Source: Deltaproteobacteria bacterium (GTDB taxonomy: Bacteria; Bdellovibrionota_C; UBA2361; SZUA-149; JADLFC01). Taken from it: a stretch of 33,404 nucleotides of DNA. Below are positions 8,159 to 33,090 of the stretch, in pieces (position 1 is the stretch's first letter; every line of letters begins with the position of its first letter). Under the pieces are notes generated by a model. That model saw only the letters and a list, made by a program, of their open reading frames with translations, was not told the origin of the DNA and made no database searches. The DNA lies in contig JADLFC010000001.1 of assembly GCA_020845775.1 (NCBI GenBank), positions 1 through 33,404 on the forward strand, written 5' to 3'. The translations under genes were made by a program, and so were the position numbers.

Positions 8159-8647
8159 GTGAAATCTATATTGGCCGTTTTATTTCTGAGCGTGAGCACC
8201 TTCTCGCTCCCACTTCAGGCGCTAGCGTGTTCTTGTACCGAACCTGCATCGATAGAACAGGCCTTTAATGAGGCGTCGCTAGTATTCCTAGGCCGCGTTA
8301 AAAAAATTAGAGAAAACCCGCTTAGAAAAGGCCAAAGAGAAGTTACGTTCGCCATCACGACTTTATTTAAGGACGACACAGAAACCGAACAGAAGCTAGA
8401 GCAAGTCTTGATATATACGCCTATGGATGAAGCAATGTGCGGGGTTAATTTTGCGATTGAATTTGACTATTTAGTCTTCGCCAATGGCACTCCAGCTCAC
8501 TACAAGACTAATCTTTGCATGAACAACAAAGCTATCGACATAGCGACAGACGACGTCAAAGAACTTGAAAAACTCACTAACGCCAGTCAAGCAGAGTCGG
8601 CACAATTACCGATGCCGCAAAGCAAAAATAGATCATTGGGAAATTAA
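8159..8647 (+). CDS. Secreted TIMP/netrin-like (NTR) domain protein
   Basis: The start is a GTG directly after the TAA of the lipoprotein gene. Residues 1-23 form a signal peptide ending in ALA, which predicts signal-peptidase-I cleavage just before C24-S25-C26, so the mature protein would begin Cys-X-Cys. The only other cysteines are C94 and C120. The spacing (C24 to C94, C26 to C120) closely matches the C1-C70 and C3-C99 disulfides of animal TIMPs. The segment FDYLVFANG (102-110) resembles the conserved beta-strand of NTR domains. In TIMPs the free N-terminal Cys chelates the metalloprotease zinc. A bacterial role as protease inhibitor is an inference. The last ~25 residues are a polar tail. 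Confidence 0.75.
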   Translation: MKSILAVLFLSVSTFSLPLQALACSCTEPASIEQAFNEASLVFLGRVKKIRENPLRKGQREVTFAITTLFKDDTETEQKLEQVLIYTPMDEAMCGVNFAIEFDYLVFANGTPAHYKTNLCMNNKAIDIATDDVKELEKLTNASQAESAQLPMPQSKNRSLGN

Positions 8648-23308: not shown

Positions 23309-24163
23309 ATGACGGAGGAAAGGTCGCTTGTATTGATATCTGATGCCGAGGTTGGCGACTATGCTGTCTGCCCCGAAAGCTGGCGACTAAAGTACGTCGA
23401 TAAAAAGTTGTTTAGGCGGACTGAGCGCAGTGCCACCACACAGAAACAGCGCAGTAATTGGGTTAAGGTTCAGGATTTATCCACACAGCTAAAGCGGTAT
23501 GCCGGCATTGCCTATGGTCTTTTAGTCATATTTGTCTTCGTCGTTTTTTTACTAGATCGGCACAATGAGCTGCAAGAGGACAGTATAATATACAAGGCTA
23601 GTAACTTATGGAGCGAATCGAATGGTCATCATTGGGATAGAATATATATTATCATTATTATTCTTGGAGTAATAATTTTTGTATGGGATCTATTCGATCG
23701 CAAAAGCAAAGTCTCAAAAAAAGAGGCGGGAATTGATGAAAACGCTAGAGCCTTAGCAGTAAAAGACAGCTCGCTTATTCCGGAACGACAATATTTGTCT
23801 GAAGAAAATGGATTATCGAGCAAACCCGATGCTGTTTATAAAATAGATAAGCACATTATCCCTGTAGATCGATACACCAGTACGAACAAGGTGCGAGACA
23901 GACATGTCCTTAGGCTACTACTTCACATGCGCCTCATAGGAGACGTCGATGGGATTGAGCCACCTTATGGATTATTGATTATGGGCCCCAAGGCGAGGAC
24001 GGTTCGCATCGAAAGCAACGACGAGCGCCGAAGGTGGCTAGATTCGGTAATTGCCGAGATGAGAGCAATTATCGACGGAGTTCCTGCCGAACCCTTGCCA
24101 TCAGAAGTGAAGTGCCTTCATTGCGACGTTAAGAGCATCTGCAAATTTCGCTTTAGCAAGTAA
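23309..24163 (+). CDS. Membrane-inserted Cas4/RecB-like PD-(D/E)XK family protein, probably inactive
   Basis: The 284-aa protein starts like Cas4 (LISDAEVGDYAVCPESWRLK, C21) and ends like it (P-x-KCLHCDVKSIC, with C269, C272, C278). One N-terminal Cys plus C-x2-C-x5-C is the Fe-S pattern of Cas4. Between them, two transmembrane segments are inserted (about 64-83 and 112-128). The nuclease core follows: D174 (SKPDAVY) fits motif II, but motif III reads PVDRY (D187, Y189) in place of E-x-K, and the QLxxY motif appears as R202...H206. I infer a membrane-anchored, Fe-S-bearing protein that has probably lost nuclease activity. No cas genes or repeats are nearby. It converges with the GspE-like/receiver gene, with 28 bp between stops. 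The ATG has only a weak ribosome-binding site. Confidence 0.75.
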   Translation: MTEERSLVLISDAEVGDYAVCPESWRLKYVDKKLFRRTERSATTQKQRSNWVKVQDLSTQLKRYAGIAYGLLVIFVFVVFLLDRHNELQEDSIIYKASNLWSESNGHHWDRIYIIIIILGVIIFVWDLFDRKSKVSKKEAGIDENARALAVKDSSLIPERQYLSEENGLSSKPDAVYKIDKHIIPVDRYTSTNKVRDRHVLRLLLHMRLIGDVDGIEPPYGLLIMGPKARTVRIESNDERRRWLDSVIAEMRAIIDGVPAEPLPSEVKCLHCDVKSICKFRFSK

Positions 24164-24191: not shown

Positions 24192-25841
24192 TCACTTGCT
24201 TAGTAGTTTTTGGACTCGTTTTAGCAGCACCTTGCGATTGACGGTTTTTGAGCAATAATCGTCGGCACCAACTTCAAGCAAATTGCATTCCGCATCGGAA
24301 CCACCCACTGCGGTTAATATCAGAACTGGAAGGCGTTTTAGTTTTTCTGAAGCGCGCAGCTCTTTTACAAACTGTTCGCCATTCATGATTGGCATCATGA
24401 GATCGCATACGACGATGTCTACGGGCTTAAAATCCAGTATCTCGAGGGCCTCTTTGCCGTTAGTGGCCTGTAGAATTTCATACTGTTCTTTTTGAAAAAC
24501 TATTTTTAGAATTTCCATCTGATCGCGATCGTCCTCGACGAGGAGAACGCGCCGCGAACCCTTTGTCGAAGCAGCAGAATCGACAAAAAACTCATCTCCC
24601 ACTGAGCTTAGGGCCGCATTAATTTCTCTATCTATAGGGGTCTCATCGCTATCCGATTTACTGCTCGCTATAGAGGCTACAAATGCGCGGCTAATATCGG
24701 CGACGACCCCAAATAGTTCTTCAAAACTCGTATGCCCATGATATACCTTATCCAGGCCATCTTCCATTAGGCTCCTGGCGCCCTTGCGATAGGCAATTTG
24801 CGTAATATCTGTAATGGACTTGTCTTCACGCATCTTTTGGCGCATCTGTTCGTCTACATATACAAGGCTATCGAGGCCAATGGTGCCCTTATACGCTAGT
24901 TCCCCACACTCGCTGCAACCTCGTCCAAAGAGATACGTCCTGTTTTTAGCAGGCCTAATTGCCATAGGAAGTCGCTCTAATAGTTTTGGATCTGCCGCAG
25001 ACGAGCGGGCGCAGGCATGACAGACCCGGCGAACGCGCTTATGCACGTAGGCCAGCCTAAGAGCCGAAAAATACTGCTGCTTCAGATCACGCGAATCGCC
25101 CAGTAAACCAGCGAAGTTAAAAATCATCTCGACAGGATCTTGCGAGGCCAGGCTAACTACGACTAAGTTCCTAGTCGCCTTTTCTAAAGCATCTACTGCC
25201 TTGGTAAAAGAATGAACATTGTGAAACAATAAAGCATCAGGCCTGCACGCCAAAGTTCTTGCGCCTGCACTCACAGCAGCAGATCGTTCACCATCACTGA
25301 CTAAGACAATACCGGTTGCTTGACTTAGGCCTTGCTCAAAAAACTCCTTATTCCGCTCGCTAACTCCGTCCAGCGTAAGAGACATTCCGTGCGGGTGCTC
25401 GAGTACTCTAAGCTTTAGCACATCAACTTCTTCGCCATCTTGCGCCTGGCTATCAATTGCAATATCGATAAGCAATTTTCCATACTGCTTGTTGTCAATA
25501 GCTAATCGCTTAGACCTGTTTTGGTTCGTGCACCAAAGTACGTCTCCAGGATCCGGCCAATAAACGGCGCGAGCTAGCACCACATCTCTCAGCAAGGGAA
25601 AAAATTCAGTACTAACTTTAAAAACATCGATTGGAGAAGAATCCCTATTGGTTCTAAAACAAACGGACTTGTAAAATTGAATCTCAAGTGCTTCGGTGCT
25701 GTGTGCAAAAACTACCTCTTTTGCACTATTCGCAACGAGTCTTTGAAGTAGCCCTTCAAAACATTTTACGGCCTGAAGCGAGTCAGCATAAAAACGCGAT
25801 AGCCGTAAAGAAGCAGTGCCAGTATCCGCCTTTGATCCCAT
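24192..25841 (-). CDS. GspE/PilB-like pseudo-ATPase fused to a response-regulator receiver domain
   Basis: The 549-aa protein has two parts. Residues ~20-390 follow the type II/IV secretion ATPase plan: GMSLTLDG then GIVLVSDGERSAAVSAGA (177-194), where GspE has GxxGSGKT. PDALLFHNVHS (201-211) stands where Walker B should be, and SLASQD (230-235) where the His box STLHTND should be. The tetracysteine zinc motif is kept (C274, C277, C309, C312), with YKGTIGLDSLVYVDEQMR and the end ARSLMEDGLDKV typical of GspE. All three nucleotide motifs are lost and the gap between the Walker positions is far shorter than normal. Residues 431-548 are a receiver domain with D437/D438, phospho-acceptor D480, T510 and K532, all intact. 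The likely role is phosphorylation-dependent regulation or scaffolding, not ATP-driven transport. Confidence 0.82.
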   Translation of the reverse strand: MGSKADTGTASLRLSRFYADSLQAVKCFEGLLQRLVANSAKEVVFAHSTEALEIQFYKSVCFRTNRDSSPIDVFKVSTEFFPLLRDVVLARAVYWPDPGDVLWCTNQNRSKRLAIDNKQYGKLLIDIAIDSQAQDGEEVDVLKLRVLEHPHGMSLTLDGVSERNKEFFEQGLSQATGIVLVSDGERSAAVSAGARTLACRPDALLFHNVHSFTKAVDALEKATRNLVVVSLASQDPVEMIFNFAGLLGDSRDLKQQYFSALRLAYVHKRVRRVCHACARSSAADPKLLERLPMAIRPAKNRTYLFGRGCSECGELAYKGTIGLDSLVYVDEQMRQKMREDKSITDITQIAYRKGARSLMEDGLDKVYHGHTSFEELFGVVADISRAFVASIASSKSDSDETPIDREINAALSSVGDEFFVDSAASTKGSRRVLLVEDDRDQMEILKIVFQKEQYEILQATNGKEALEILDFKPVDIVVCDLMMPIMNGEQFVKELRASEKLKRLPVLILTAVGGSDAECNLLEVGADDYCSKTVNRKVLLKRVQKLLSK

Positions 25842-29666: not shown

Positions 29667-29741
29667 GGCCCCTTCGTCTAGCGGTTAGGACAGCGGCCTC
29701 TCACGCCGCAAGCACGGGTTCGATTCCCGTAGGGGTCACCA
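29667..29741 (+). tRNA. tRNA-Glu (anticodon CUC)
   Basis: The acceptor stem GGCCCCT/AGGGGTC has one G-U pair, with discriminator A and an encoded CCA. The anticodon stem GCGGC/GCCGC encloses CTCTCAC, so the anticodon is CUC, which reads GAG only. The D-arm (TCGTCTAGCGGTTAGGACA) and T-arm (CGGGTTCGATTCCCG) are typical of tRNA-Glu. The gene ends 25 bp before the next ORF. Confidence 0.96.
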
Positions 29742-29766
29742 TTTTCTTGAGGGTATCTTTAACGGC

Positions 29767-30330
29767 ATGTACTTTGGTCAAGAAACTAGGCGAAGCAGCA
29801 GAAACCAAAAAGTCGTTGAAATTAAAGTAAATGAGCTTAAGCAGCTTTTCGACGAAAGGGATCCAGCACCTTTTCGCGAAAAGGATTTGGACGACGATGC
29901 GGTAAGCTATATAGTATCGTCTGTCCAGGACATTTCTCCTGAAAAAGTCGAAAAACTACTCATCCACGTAAACAAGGAAATGCACACTGCTGTGCAAAAG
30001 GAAGATGCTATTAAAGCTATTCACGAATTTTTTCTATACGAAAGCGAGCAAATGGCTAAGAAAATCAGGGCCGAACTGCGCGTAGGCGTAAAATCCCTTA
30101 TCATTGGGGCCGCATTCCTAACAATTGCCGTTTCTTTTGCTCTATTAATACCGGAAAATACAAAGTCATTTTGGCCTCTCTTCTTTAAGGAGGGTCTTTT
30201 CCTGACTGGCTGGGTTTCGATGTGGAAACCCATTAATATTTTTCTTTATGAATGGTGGCCTTTATACGATATTAAAAAGACTTATATATGTCTTTCAAAC
30301 ATTAATATCGATTTTATTGAGGCCCCCTAA
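29767..30330 (+). CDS. Membrane protein with an N-terminal DP-x-PF-x-EKDLD motif
   Basis: A 187-aa protein. The soluble N-terminal ~105 residues contain DPAPFREKDLDDDAVSYI (32-49) and helical segments. Two transmembrane helices follow (about 107-127 and 136-157), with a WKPINIFLYEWWPLYD patch after the second. I recall proteins with this motif and helix pair beside GCS2/RimK genes, but I do not know a function. GAGG lies 13 nt before the ATG. It starts 25 bp after tRNA-Glu and is followed 88 bp later by the RimK-like gene on the same strand, so it could be a membrane partner of that cassette. Confidence 0.7.
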   Translation: MYFGQETRRSSRNQKVVEIKVNELKQLFDERDPAPFREKDLDDDAVSYIVSSVQDISPEKVEKLLIHVNKEMHTAVQKEDAIKAIHEFFLYESEQMAKKIRAELRVGVKSLIIGAAFLTIAVSFALLIPENTKSFWPLFFKEGLFLTGWVSMWKPINIFLYEWWPLYDIKKTYICLSNINIDFIEAP

Positions 30331-30418
30331 AATGGCGCTGGCCCATAGGTGGTGAATGAAATTTTTATGCTTGTCCTTTCTTGTTTTTTCCTAATCATGA
30401 GACTCTGTACCTAGGCAG

Positions 30419-31861
30419 ATGAAGACCGTCATAATAGTCAACAAAAAATCAGATATCGATTTCGATGACGCCCAAGTGGACATTCTCGAAGCCGATGAAT
30501 ATCTCGTTAACGCAAACCACTTGCGGCATTCGGTTCGCGTATTTAATCTTTGTCGCGACTTGTCGTATTGCAAAAAAGGTTACTATGTATCCTTAATCGC
30601 TGAGGCAAGAGGGCATCGCCCTTTACCTAACGTGCTAACGATGATGGATCTGCAACTCCAGTCCGTCACCCGCTTTATAGCTGAAAACTTTGAACTGCAA
30701 CTAGAAAAACTCTTCTCGTCCATAAGCAGTAACACATTTGAGCTTAGCATCTATTTTGGGCAGAACCTCGCTCAGAAGTACAACCAACTTAGCAGACAAA
30801 TTTTTTCGCAATTTAAAGCCCCTTTAATGCGGGCCTTCTTTATCAAAAAGGGTGGTTTTTGGAGCATTCAGCGCGTTAAAGTCCTTTCGCTAAAGGACGT
30901 TCCAGAGAATCACAAAGAATTCTTATATTCTGCAATGCGCAATTACTTTGCCAAGAGCAATTCCATTTCCAAACGTCGAAAACTTACGCGCTATGATTTA
31001 GCAATTTTGCTGAACCCAGAAGAAAAACATCCTCCGTCGGATCGCGGTGCAATAAAGAAATTTATTTCTGCTGCACAAGATTGTCGCATAGCAGCAGAAA
31101 TCATTACCCCAAAAGATTTGCCACTATTGCCACAATTCGATGCACTTTTTATTCGAGAAACTACAAGTGTTACCGATCACACGTTTCAGTTCGCACGCCT
31201 TTCGGAAGAAGATGGCTTAATATGCATCGACGATACCACTTCTATTCTGAGATGCTGCAATAAGATTTATCTAAACTATTCACTGCAAAAGCGCTGCATT
31301 CCAATTCCAGCAACTCAAATCATTGCCAAGGGAACCGATCTATCTTCGTTGAAACTACCCTTCCCCATAGTAGTAAAAAAGCCAGACAGCGCATTTTCTC
31401 TGGGAGTAAAAAAAGCCGAAGACAAGGATGAACTACAAGATATTTGCAAGGAATATTTCAAGCATACTGACCTAATTATTTGCCAAGAGTTCATGCCCAC
31501 AACTTTTGACTGGCGCATTGGCATAATAGATGGCGAACCCATTTATGCATGTAAATACTACATGGCAAGAGACCACTGGCAAATAATTAACCAGTCTAAA
31601 ACAAAAATGGATTCTGGCGATGTCGATGTATCCTCCATTGGAGACGCACCTAAGGAGGCTATAAAACTTGCCATAGAAGCCTCGCGATGCATAGGAAACA
31701 GTTTATATGGCATAGATATTAAAGAAAAAAATGGGAAATTTTATATTATTGAAGTAAATGACAATCCAAGTATCGAAAAAGGGTATGAAGACAAGATTGC
31801 CCAGGACTACCTATATCGCCGCATCATGGAAACCTTCTACAAACGCCTGGAAATGAGGTAG
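30419..31861 (+). CDS. RimK-like ATP-grasp ligase with RLAN N-terminal domain
   Basis: The 480-aa protein has an N-terminal RLAN-type domain (about 1-185) including YYVSLIAEARGHRPLPNV (55-72), and a C-terminal ATP-grasp domain with FPIVVKKPDSAFSLGV (315-330), WRIGIIDGEPIYACKYYM (365-382) and YIIEVNDNPSIEKGYED (442-458), where E445 and N447 are predicted Mg ligands. ATP-grasp enzymes of this type ligate amino acids, often glutamate, through acyl-phosphate intermediates. The gene lies 14 bp upstream of a GCS2 gene, a pairing known in amidoligase gene clusters thought to make small peptides or modify proteins. Substrates are unknown. Confidence 0.87.
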   Translation: MKTVIIVNKKSDIDFDDAQVDILEADEYLVNANHLRHSVRVFNLCRDLSYCKKGYYVSLIAEARGHRPLPNVLTMMDLQLQSVTRFIAENFELQLEKLFSSISSNTFELSIYFGQNLAQKYNQLSRQIFSQFKAPLMRAFFIKKGGFWSIQRVKVLSLKDVPENHKEFLYSAMRNYFAKSNSISKRRKLTRYDLAILLNPEEKHPPSDRGAIKKFISAAQDCRIAAEIITPKDLPLLPQFDALFIRETTSVTDHTFQFARLSEEDGLICIDDTTSILRCCNKIYLNYSLQKRCIPIPATQIIAKGTDLSSLKLPFPIVVKKPDSAFSLGVKKAEDKDELQDICKEYFKHTDLIICQEFMPTTFDWRIGIIDGEPIYACKYYMARDHWQIINQSKTKMDSGDVDVSSIGDAPKEAIKLAIEASRCIGNSLYGIDIKEKNGKFYIIEVNDNPSIEKGYEDKIAQDYLYRRIMETFYKRLEMR

Positions 31862-31875
31862 TTTATCGACACCCG

Positions 31876-33090
31876 ATGGGAGCTTACAAACTTCTTGAAG
31901 TTTTCGGCATTGAGTTAGAGTACATGATAGCAGACAAGCTATCATTAGATGTTATGCCAATTGCCGACAAACTATTTATGGCAGCATCTGGCTCATTCCT
32001 CGACACCGTAGAGAGAGGAATAATTGATTGGTCAAACGAGCTAGCTTTGCACGTAGTCGAACTTAAAAATCCCCTGCCATCTAAAAATGTCTTGGATCTC
32101 TGCTCTGCGTTTAGTGATGAAATTAATACTATCGATTCATACCTCGACAAATTTGGCGCAATCTTGTTGCCGTCTGGAGTTCACCCTTGGATGAATCCGG
32201 AAAGAGAAACTAAGTTGTGGCCACACGACGGTGGAGAGATTTATCGCACCTACGATAGACTCTTTGGATGCAAACGCCATGGGTGGGCAAATCTCCAGAG
32301 CATGCACGTGAATTTACCCTTTGGCAATGAGAGCGAATTTGAACAATTGCACTCTGCCATTCGCTGCATATTGCCCCTCATTCCGGCTCTTTCGTCTAGT
32401 TCTCCCATTATAGATGGCCAAGTAAGTGGGATTCACAGTAACCGCTTGCAACACTACCTAAAAAATCAAAAAAAGATTCCATCGATTATGGGCCTTGCGA
32501 TACCGGAACGCATATCTACTAAGCAGGAGTACGGCGACAAAATTCTTCAGCCGATGTATGCTGACATTGGGGAAATAGACGCTTCGGGCTTACTAAAAAA
32601 CGAGTGGCTAAACTCGCGAGGGGCAATAGCTAGGTTTGACCGAAATTGCATTGAAATTCGCCTTTTCGATGTGCAGGAAGCGCCGTTTATAGATTTAGCT
32701 ATAGCGGAATTTTGGATAACCACCTTAAGACACATAATACTCGGCAAATTTTGCGACTTCAATAGAGTGCGCAGCTTAGAGACGATGCGACTACGAGAAG
32801 TATTGGATGCCACTATTAGAGACGGCGAAATGGCACAAATAAGCTATGGCGAATTATTAAATATATTTGGCCTAAATAATCCCTGTACCGCTTTTCAATT
32901 ATTAGAAACTATTCTCGAAAAGGTCTCTTGCTGTAATGAAAATGTTTTATCTGTAATCACATACATATTGAGGCACGGCACTCTTTCTACTCGTATTCTC
33001 AGGCGCTATCGCGAAAGCGGCAATCTAGTAAAGACATTTTTACCCCTATCAGAGTGCCTGCGAAACGGCCAGTTTTATGAAGCGTACTGA
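31876..33090 (+). CDS. GCS2-type carboxylate-amine ligase (glutamate-cysteine-ligase-like)
   Basis: The 404-aa protein shows GCS2 family blocks: FGIELEYMI (10-18), HVVELKNPLPS (59-69), GVHPWMNPERETKLWP (101-116), WANLQSMHVNLPFG (137-150), SSSSPIIDG (173-181) and RFDRNCIEIRLFD (253-265). These form the ATP/glutamate site of gamma-glutamyl-type ligases. It probably joins an amino acid through a carboxylate together with the RimK-like protein upstream; glutathione synthesis itself is possible but is not implied. The nearest GAGG is about 18 nt before the ATG, so translation may be coupled to the upstream gene. A long stem-loop begins at its stop codon. Confidence 0.9.
   Translation: MGAYKLLEVFGIELEYMIADKLSLDVMPIADKLFMAASGSFLDTVERGIIDWSNELALHVVELKNPLPSKNVLDLCSAFSDEINTIDSYLDKFGAILLPSGVHPWMNPERETKLWPHDGGEIYRTYDRLFGCKRHGWANLQSMHVNLPFGNESEFEQLHSAIRCILPLIPALSSSSPIIDGQVSGIHSNRLQHYLKNQKKIPSIMGLAIPERISTKQEYGDKILQPMYADIGEIDASGLLKNEWLNSRGAIARFDRNCIEIRLFDVQEAPFIDLAIAEFWITTLRHIILGKFCDFNRVRSLETMRLREVLDATIRDGEMAQISYGELLNIFGLNNPCTAFQLLETILEKVSCCNENVLSVITYILRHGTLSTRILRRYRESGNLVKTFLPLSECLRNGQFYEAY

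What the first reader, a model, noticed from the sequence alone, without database searches (positions are those of the whole stretch)
29667..33090. tRNA-Glu, membrane protein, RLAN-RimK and GCS2 in one directional run
Two amino-acid ligases that commonly use glutamate follow a tRNA-Glu and a two-TM protein, all on the plus strand within 3.4 kb. RimK/GCS2 pairs are known from amidoligase surveys, but the product is unknown. Linkage with the membrane protein suggests a product made at or moved across the membrane.
Basis: partly seen in the sequence, partly recalled or inferred. Interest (0 to 1): 0.55.

Follow-up and report, generated by a model that had tools for sequence, protein, structure and literature searches.

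The report
Stripped-down two-ligase peptide operon
Two neighbouring enzymes that probably join amino acids into a small peptide or tag are the core of an operon common in other bacteria; this copy looks transferred in and seems to have lost the usual pair of peptide-cutting enzymes, while the nearby tRNA gene is a bystander.

Summary
In detail: tRNA-Glu, a 187-aa membrane-type protein (MEM), RLAN/RimK-like ATP-grasp and GCS2 ligase lie on the plus strand at 29667-33090. Comparison changes the interpretation. The ligase pair is the core of a four-gene operon: C39-like cysteine peptidase, RLAN-ATP-grasp, GCS2, N-formylglutamate-amidohydrolase-like enzyme (FGase). Of 63 relatives with the pair (Bdellovibrionota, Planctomycetota, Legionella), 55 show the peptidase and 43 the FGase. 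The window lacks both, and neither was found elsewhere in its 95.8%-complete assembly; four of the 63 also lack both. MEM lies near the operon in 2 of 63, so it is not generally co-conserved; yet in G243, of the window's own four-member group, MEM overlaps the peptidase start codon, so the link is real but clade-restricted. tRNA-Glu is near none of the 63 and is a bystander. Among sampled relatives of the genome, RLAN is in 0 of 44 others and MEM in 0 of 37, which suggests joint transfer. Likely function: glutathione-style serial peptide ligation; product unknown. A new, shortened member of a known kind.

The parts
29667..29741 (+). tRNA-Glu (CTC); bystander, not part of the system
   Evidence: no tRNA-Glu in the fetched flanks of 63 related loci
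29767..30330 (+). MEM: 187-aa membrane-type protein of a widespread unnamed family; clade-restricted accessory gene
30331..30418 (+). 88-nt gap where the nearest MEM-bearing relative (L091) carries the C39-like peptidase gene; no peptidase remnant recognised by eye in the three forward frames
30419..31861 (+). RLAN-ATP-grasp ligase, 480 aa (RLAN residues 26-170, RimK-like ATP-grasp about 289-455)
31876..33090 (+). GCS2-family carboxylate-amine ligase, 404 aa

Best explanation
A horizontally acquired, shortened copy of a conserved peptide-ligase operon whose full form is C39-like cysteine peptidase, RLAN-ATP-grasp ligase, GCS2 ligase, N-formylglutamate-amidohydrolase-like enzyme (FGase). Most likely the two ligases act in series as in glutathione synthesis: GCS2 activates the gamma-carboxylate of glutamate (or a like acid) and joins an amine, and the ATP-grasp enzyme then adds a further residue, giving a small soluble gamma-glutamyl peptide. 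In most relatives the two hydrolases trim or recycle it; here they appear lost and the ligases alone would have to suffice. MEM is a membrane accessory that belongs to the operon only in this small clade. Shown: gene identities, conserved order, kept conserved residues, hydrolases not found in the assembly, clade and phyletic pattern. Inferred: order of reactions, substrates, product, role of MEM, transfer as one block.
For: Conserved order: in 43 of 43 loci known to have GCS2 it is on the RLAN strand, its open frame beginning less than 250 nt after RLAN ends; 20 of 20 further loci have GCS2 (one, G460, had been seen with it). C39 in 36 of 43 and 19 of 20; FGase in 27 of 43 and 16 of 20; some misses are contig ends, so these are lower bounds. 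Both hydrolases missing in 4 of 63 (L094, L097, L098, close relatives of each other, and L107), so the pair is the steady core. Window ligases keep 81 of 85 and 61 of 64 near-invariant residues, among them K320, D433, E445, N447 of the ATP-grasp and E13, E15, R262 of GCS2 (that they are catalytic rests on family knowledge and the RimK alignment). Nearest solved ATP-grasp: RimK ligases. Own genome: no operon-type C39, no FGase. RLAN tree: window + L010 100/99, with L103 and L091 100/100. RLAN absent from 44 of 44 and MEM from 37 of 37 other sampled relatives. No small ORF near the window pair resembles one near the 43 relatives.
Against: No substrate or product is known; RimK-like ligases also act on proteins and coenzymes. 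This GCS2 matches no NCBIfam family above cut-off and solved structures only very weakly. The assembly is incomplete, the contig ends 314 nt after GCS2, and the tool warns that an empty answer without a positive control shows nothing. A cysteine peptidase beside a ligase also fits a protein-tagging cycle.
Confidence: 0.5

Rival explanations
1. Peptide-tagging cycle: the ligases add glutamate or gamma-glutamyl residues to a protein (as RimK does to ribosomal S6) and the C39-like peptidase and FGase-like enzyme remove them. In the window the tag would not be removable by these enzymes.
For: RimK is the nearest solved ATP-grasp; ligases and hydrolases are encoded together; the peptidases keep a Cys, His and Asp that a C39 peptidase would use (C12, H168, D186 of the aligned L091 domain; their role is family knowledge).
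Against: No small tag gene found by the ORF clustering; a GCS2 enzyme is not known to me as a protein ligase (recalled).
Confidence: 0.25
2. One reading: a glutamate-based product made at or moved across the membrane with MEM as exporter or anchor.
For: MEM overlaps the peptidase start codon in G243 and lies 88 nt upstream of RLAN here; in the Planctomycetota-phylum sample 22 of 30 MEM-bearing genomes have a hit to the RLAN-ATP-grasp protein, against 94 of 392 overall, Fisher p 3e-9 (some hits cover part of the protein only).
Against: MEM near the operon in 2 of 63 loci; in the Bdellovibrionota phylum co-occurrence is 10 of 46, p 0.27. The Planctomycetota count ignores phylogeny: on the RLAN tree MEM-positive genomes are 7 of 8 in one branch, 2 of 3 in another and 0 of 14 in a third. 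There MEM and the ligase are on different contigs in 20 of 22 genomes and about 94 and 797 kb apart in the other two. MEM neighbours show no recurrent partner, best families in 4 of 92 (the two neighbours in G243 were left out of the 92).
Confidence: 0.12
3. Decaying remnant: the operon lost its hydrolases and is on the way out, with no present function.
For: Two of four usual genes not found; only copy in the sampled phylum.
Against: Both ligases full length, no stops, 142 of 149 near-invariant residues kept; four other loci keep the pair alone too.
Confidence: 0.1

Closest known systems
C39 / RLAN-ATP-grasp / GCS2 / FGase operon of Bdellovibrionota, Planctomycetota and Legionella (L010, L022, L091-L130, L183-L202)
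   Same: Same two ligases, same order and strand
   Different: Window lacks the C39-like peptidase and FGase; carries MEM
GNAT-DUF3335 (PF11814) peptidase + RLAN-ATP-grasp, as in Azospirillum and Tistrella (L026, L024)
   Same: RLAN-ATP-grasp ligase, 34-39% identical; C39-like peptidase beside it
   Different: GNAT fusion; no GCS2 found in either locus by tblastn
RimK, ribosomal protein S6-glutamate ligase
   Same: ATP-grasp domain aligns over residues 236-454
   Different: Nothing of RimK aligns to the RLAN part; score far below the NCBIfam rimK_fam cut-off (71.2 against 143.4 bits); no GCS2 partner (recalled)
Glutathione route: GshA of GCS2 type + ATP-grasp synthetase
   Same: A GCS2 ligase paired with an ATP-grasp ligase (recalled logic)
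   Different: ATP-grasp is RimK-like, GSH-S_ATP only 11.7 bits; GCS2 is under every listed glutamate-cysteine ligase cut-off
Graspetide loci (ATP-grasp RiPPs)
   Same: ATP-grasp ligase, often with a C39 peptidase-transporter (passages of PMC8939145)
   Different: No precursor peptide recognised; the C39-like gene of relatives is a single short peptidase

Membership tests
RLAN/GCS2 amidoligase operon | RLAN domain fused to RimK-like ATP-grasp | tested here: met
   PF14401 148.8 bits, PF08443 46.9 bits
RLAN/GCS2 amidoligase operon | GCS2 gene directly downstream on the same strand | tested here: met
   14 nt apart; so in 43 of 43 loci known to have GCS2, and GCS2 present in 20 of 20 more
RLAN/GCS2 amidoligase operon | C39-like peptidase upstream (usual, 55 of 63; not defining) | tested here: not met
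   Not in the window; the one own-genome C39_2 hit is a different protein that the operon C39 profile does not match. 4 of 63 relatives lack both hydrolases
RLAN/GCS2 amidoligase operon | FGase-like gene downstream (usual, 43 of 63; not defining) | tested here: not met
   Not in the 314 nt left of the contig, nor in the assembly
RimK S6-glutamate ligase | Curated rimK_fam score | tested here: not met
   71.2 bits against cut-off 143.4
Glutathione synthesis pair | Glutamate-cysteine ligase equivalog score for GCS2 | tested here: not met
   gshA_cyano 33.8 against 249.05 bits; best hit PRK13515 54.4 against 371
Glutathione synthesis pair | Makes gamma-glutamyl-cysteine, then adds glycine | not testable with these tools
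   needs enzymology
Graspetide RiPP | Conserved precursor peptide gene | tested here: not met
   No ATG-started 20-100 aa ORF within 900 nt of the window genes resembles one of the 43 relatives by blastp; GTG/TTG starts and ORFs inside genes not tested

The most novel reading that the evidence does not exclude
The operon makes an undescribed glutathione-like gamma-glutamyl peptide used across Planctomycetota and Bdellovibrionota, and in one clade a dedicated membrane protein handles it; the window shows the minimal set, two ligases and the membrane protein, without the recycling hydrolases.
Probability: 0.15. Interest if true: 0.65.

Novelty: new member of a known kind. Interest (0 to 1): 0.3.

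Why it matters
Hits to the RLAN-ATP-grasp protein at E<=1e-30 occur in 57 of 368 Bdellovibrionota-phylum and 94 of 392 Planctomycetota-phylum genomes (the weakest cover only part of the protein), and the product is, to my knowledge, unknown. The window copy and four of 63 relatives suggest that the ligase pair can persist without the hydrolases, which makes a two-enzyme in vitro test a fair first experiment.

Tried and rejected
tRNA-Glu as part of the system: rejected, 0 of 63 relatives in the flanks fetched. tRNA as island attachment site: a 19-base piece of the tRNA 3' part has no second copy in the window within 3 mismatches; the contig ends, so open. Base composition: block about 40-43% G+C against mostly 43-49% upstream, not decisive. 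Peptidase remnant in the MEM-RLAN gap: none by eye in three frames. Precursor peptide: none shared with the window; the largest small-ORF clusters hold 4 close relatives. MEM partner genes: best families in 4 of 92, small clusters only. MEM as defence or phage gene: one weak DndF hit, E 0.0034, and no PHROG. Structures: MEM pLDDT 51.4 and RLAN-ATP-grasp pLDDT 52.8, judged too weak; no fold search was run. MEM tree: window's place unresolved among 11 rows, shortest path to G243. Viral contigs: 63 pattern matches, none a relative. Relatives of the genome: the whole RLAN protein also hits 6 other genomes of 37, but only over its ATP-grasp part. Literature: nine searches listed no paper that by title or start of abstract treats this operon; I saw passages of three papers only. 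Iyer 2009 is cited there but not held, so what it says of RLAN-GCS2 is recalled.

Full report
What is there. The window is the whole contig C1 of a 2.57-Mb, 189-contig, 95.8%-complete assembly. At 29667-29741 lies tRNA-Glu(CTC), then on the same strand MEM (29767-30330), RLAN-ATP-grasp (30419-31861) and GCS2 (31876-33090). MEM matches no Pfam or NCBIfam family. The contig ends 314 nt after GCS2, with an open frame of no known family on the other strand.

The ligase pair belongs to a conserved operon. The nearest relative found, L010 (Bdellovibrionaceae MAG, 60% identical RLAN protein), reads C39-like peptidase, RLAN-ATP-grasp, GCS2, FGase. Legionella L022 reads RLAN-ATP-grasp, GCS2, N-formylglutamate amidohydrolase as annotated. 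In 43 relatives known to have the pair, C39 was found in 36 and FGase in 27. In 20 more loci, 19 of them not looked at for GCS2 before, GCS2 was in 20, C39 in 19 and FGase in 16. Misses include contig ends (L095, L022, the FGase side of L188), so the counts are lower bounds. Four of 63 lack both hydrolases: L094, L097, L098, which are close relatives of one another, and L107. A sister layout, GNAT fused to a PF11814 C39-like peptidase beside RLAN-ATP-grasp with no GCS2 found, occurs in Azospirillum and Tistrella, and a GNAT-C39 gene lies near RLAN in 16 of 30 Bdellovibrionota-phylum loci.

The window copy is short of two genes. No FGase and no operon-type C39 was found in the assembly; the one PF13529 hit is a different protein that the operon C39 profile does not match. 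The assembly is incomplete and the profile searches had no positive control in the same call, so loss is likely, not proved. Both ligases are full length and keep 81 of 85 and 61 of 64 residues that are at least 97% conserved in the panel; the changed positions are 262, 269, 273 and 428 of RLAN-ATP-grasp and 19, 102 and 174 of GCS2.

MEM. It is near the operon in 2 of 63 loci: in L091 (G243) the MEM stop codon overlaps the C39 start codon, and in L099 (G067) it lies about 1 kb upstream with another open frame between. The RLAN tree puts the window with L010 (100/99), and these with L103 and L091 in one group (100/100); so 2 of the 4 members carry MEM at the operon. MEM occurs in 46 of 368 Bdellovibrionota-phylum genomes and 30 of 392 Planctomycetota-phylum genomes. 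Co-occurrence with hits to the RLAN-ATP-grasp protein is 10 of 46 (p 0.27) and 22 of 30 (p 3e-9); with the 13 Bdellovibrionota-phylum genomes in which I saw the pair it is 4 (p 0.065). The Planctomycetota figure is not corrected for phylogeny: on the RLAN tree the MEM-positive genomes are 7 of 8 in one branch, 2 of 3 in another, 0 of 14 in a third, and MEM is not linked to the ligase there (different contigs in 20 of 22, 94 and 797 kb apart in two). Several MEMs of genomes without an RLAN hit are 45-50% identical to the window's, as is G243's (49%), while the operon-near G067 copy is 35%. MEM's immediate neighbours share no recurrent family. In the window's own sampled relatives neither MEM (0 of 37 others at E<=1e-3; seven have chance-level matches, best 0.019) nor the RLAN domain (0 of 44 others) is found, which fits joint acquisition.

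How it may work. GCS2 enzymes form amides through a gamma-glutamyl phosphate, and ATP-grasp enzymes extend acids through an acyl phosphate (family knowledge). A GCS2 and an ATP-grasp in one operon is the logic of glutathione synthesis, so I favour serial synthesis of a small gamma-glutamyl peptide, with the hydrolases as trimming or recycling enzymes where present. A protein-tagging cycle is the main rival. The lack of a recognisable precursor gene speaks against a graspetide.

Known or new. The RLAN-GCS2 association is, from memory, described by Iyer et al. 2009 (cited in papers whose passages I saw; the paper itself is not held). PMC10318531 (passages) notes DUF3335 fused to GNAT domains that might act as peptide ligases, citing that paper. 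Nine searches of the held library listed nothing on this operon. I file the window as a new, shortened member of a known kind.

Noticed in passing
window 23309-24163 +: Cas4/PD-(D/E)XK-like nuclease domain in the C-terminal part of a 284-aa protein whose middle has hydrophobic stretches; CRISPR context not examined.
   Followed up: no
window 24192-25841 -: Partial type II/IV secretion ATPase match (profile positions 267-368 of 370) followed by a C-terminal response-regulator receiver domain.
   Followed up: no
window 8159-8647 +: 162-aa protein matching the TIMP family, 27.5 bits against a cut-off of 23.1.
   Followed up: no
L011 5728-7998: In the planctomycete relative a 756-aa open frame lies between the C39-like peptidase and RLAN-ATP-grasp, so the operon can be interrupted.
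   Followed up: no
L163-L182 and the places: In the Planctomycetota-phylum sample MEM and hits to the RLAN-ATP-grasp protein co-occur (22 of 30) without being linked; may be phylogeny or function.
   Followed up: partly
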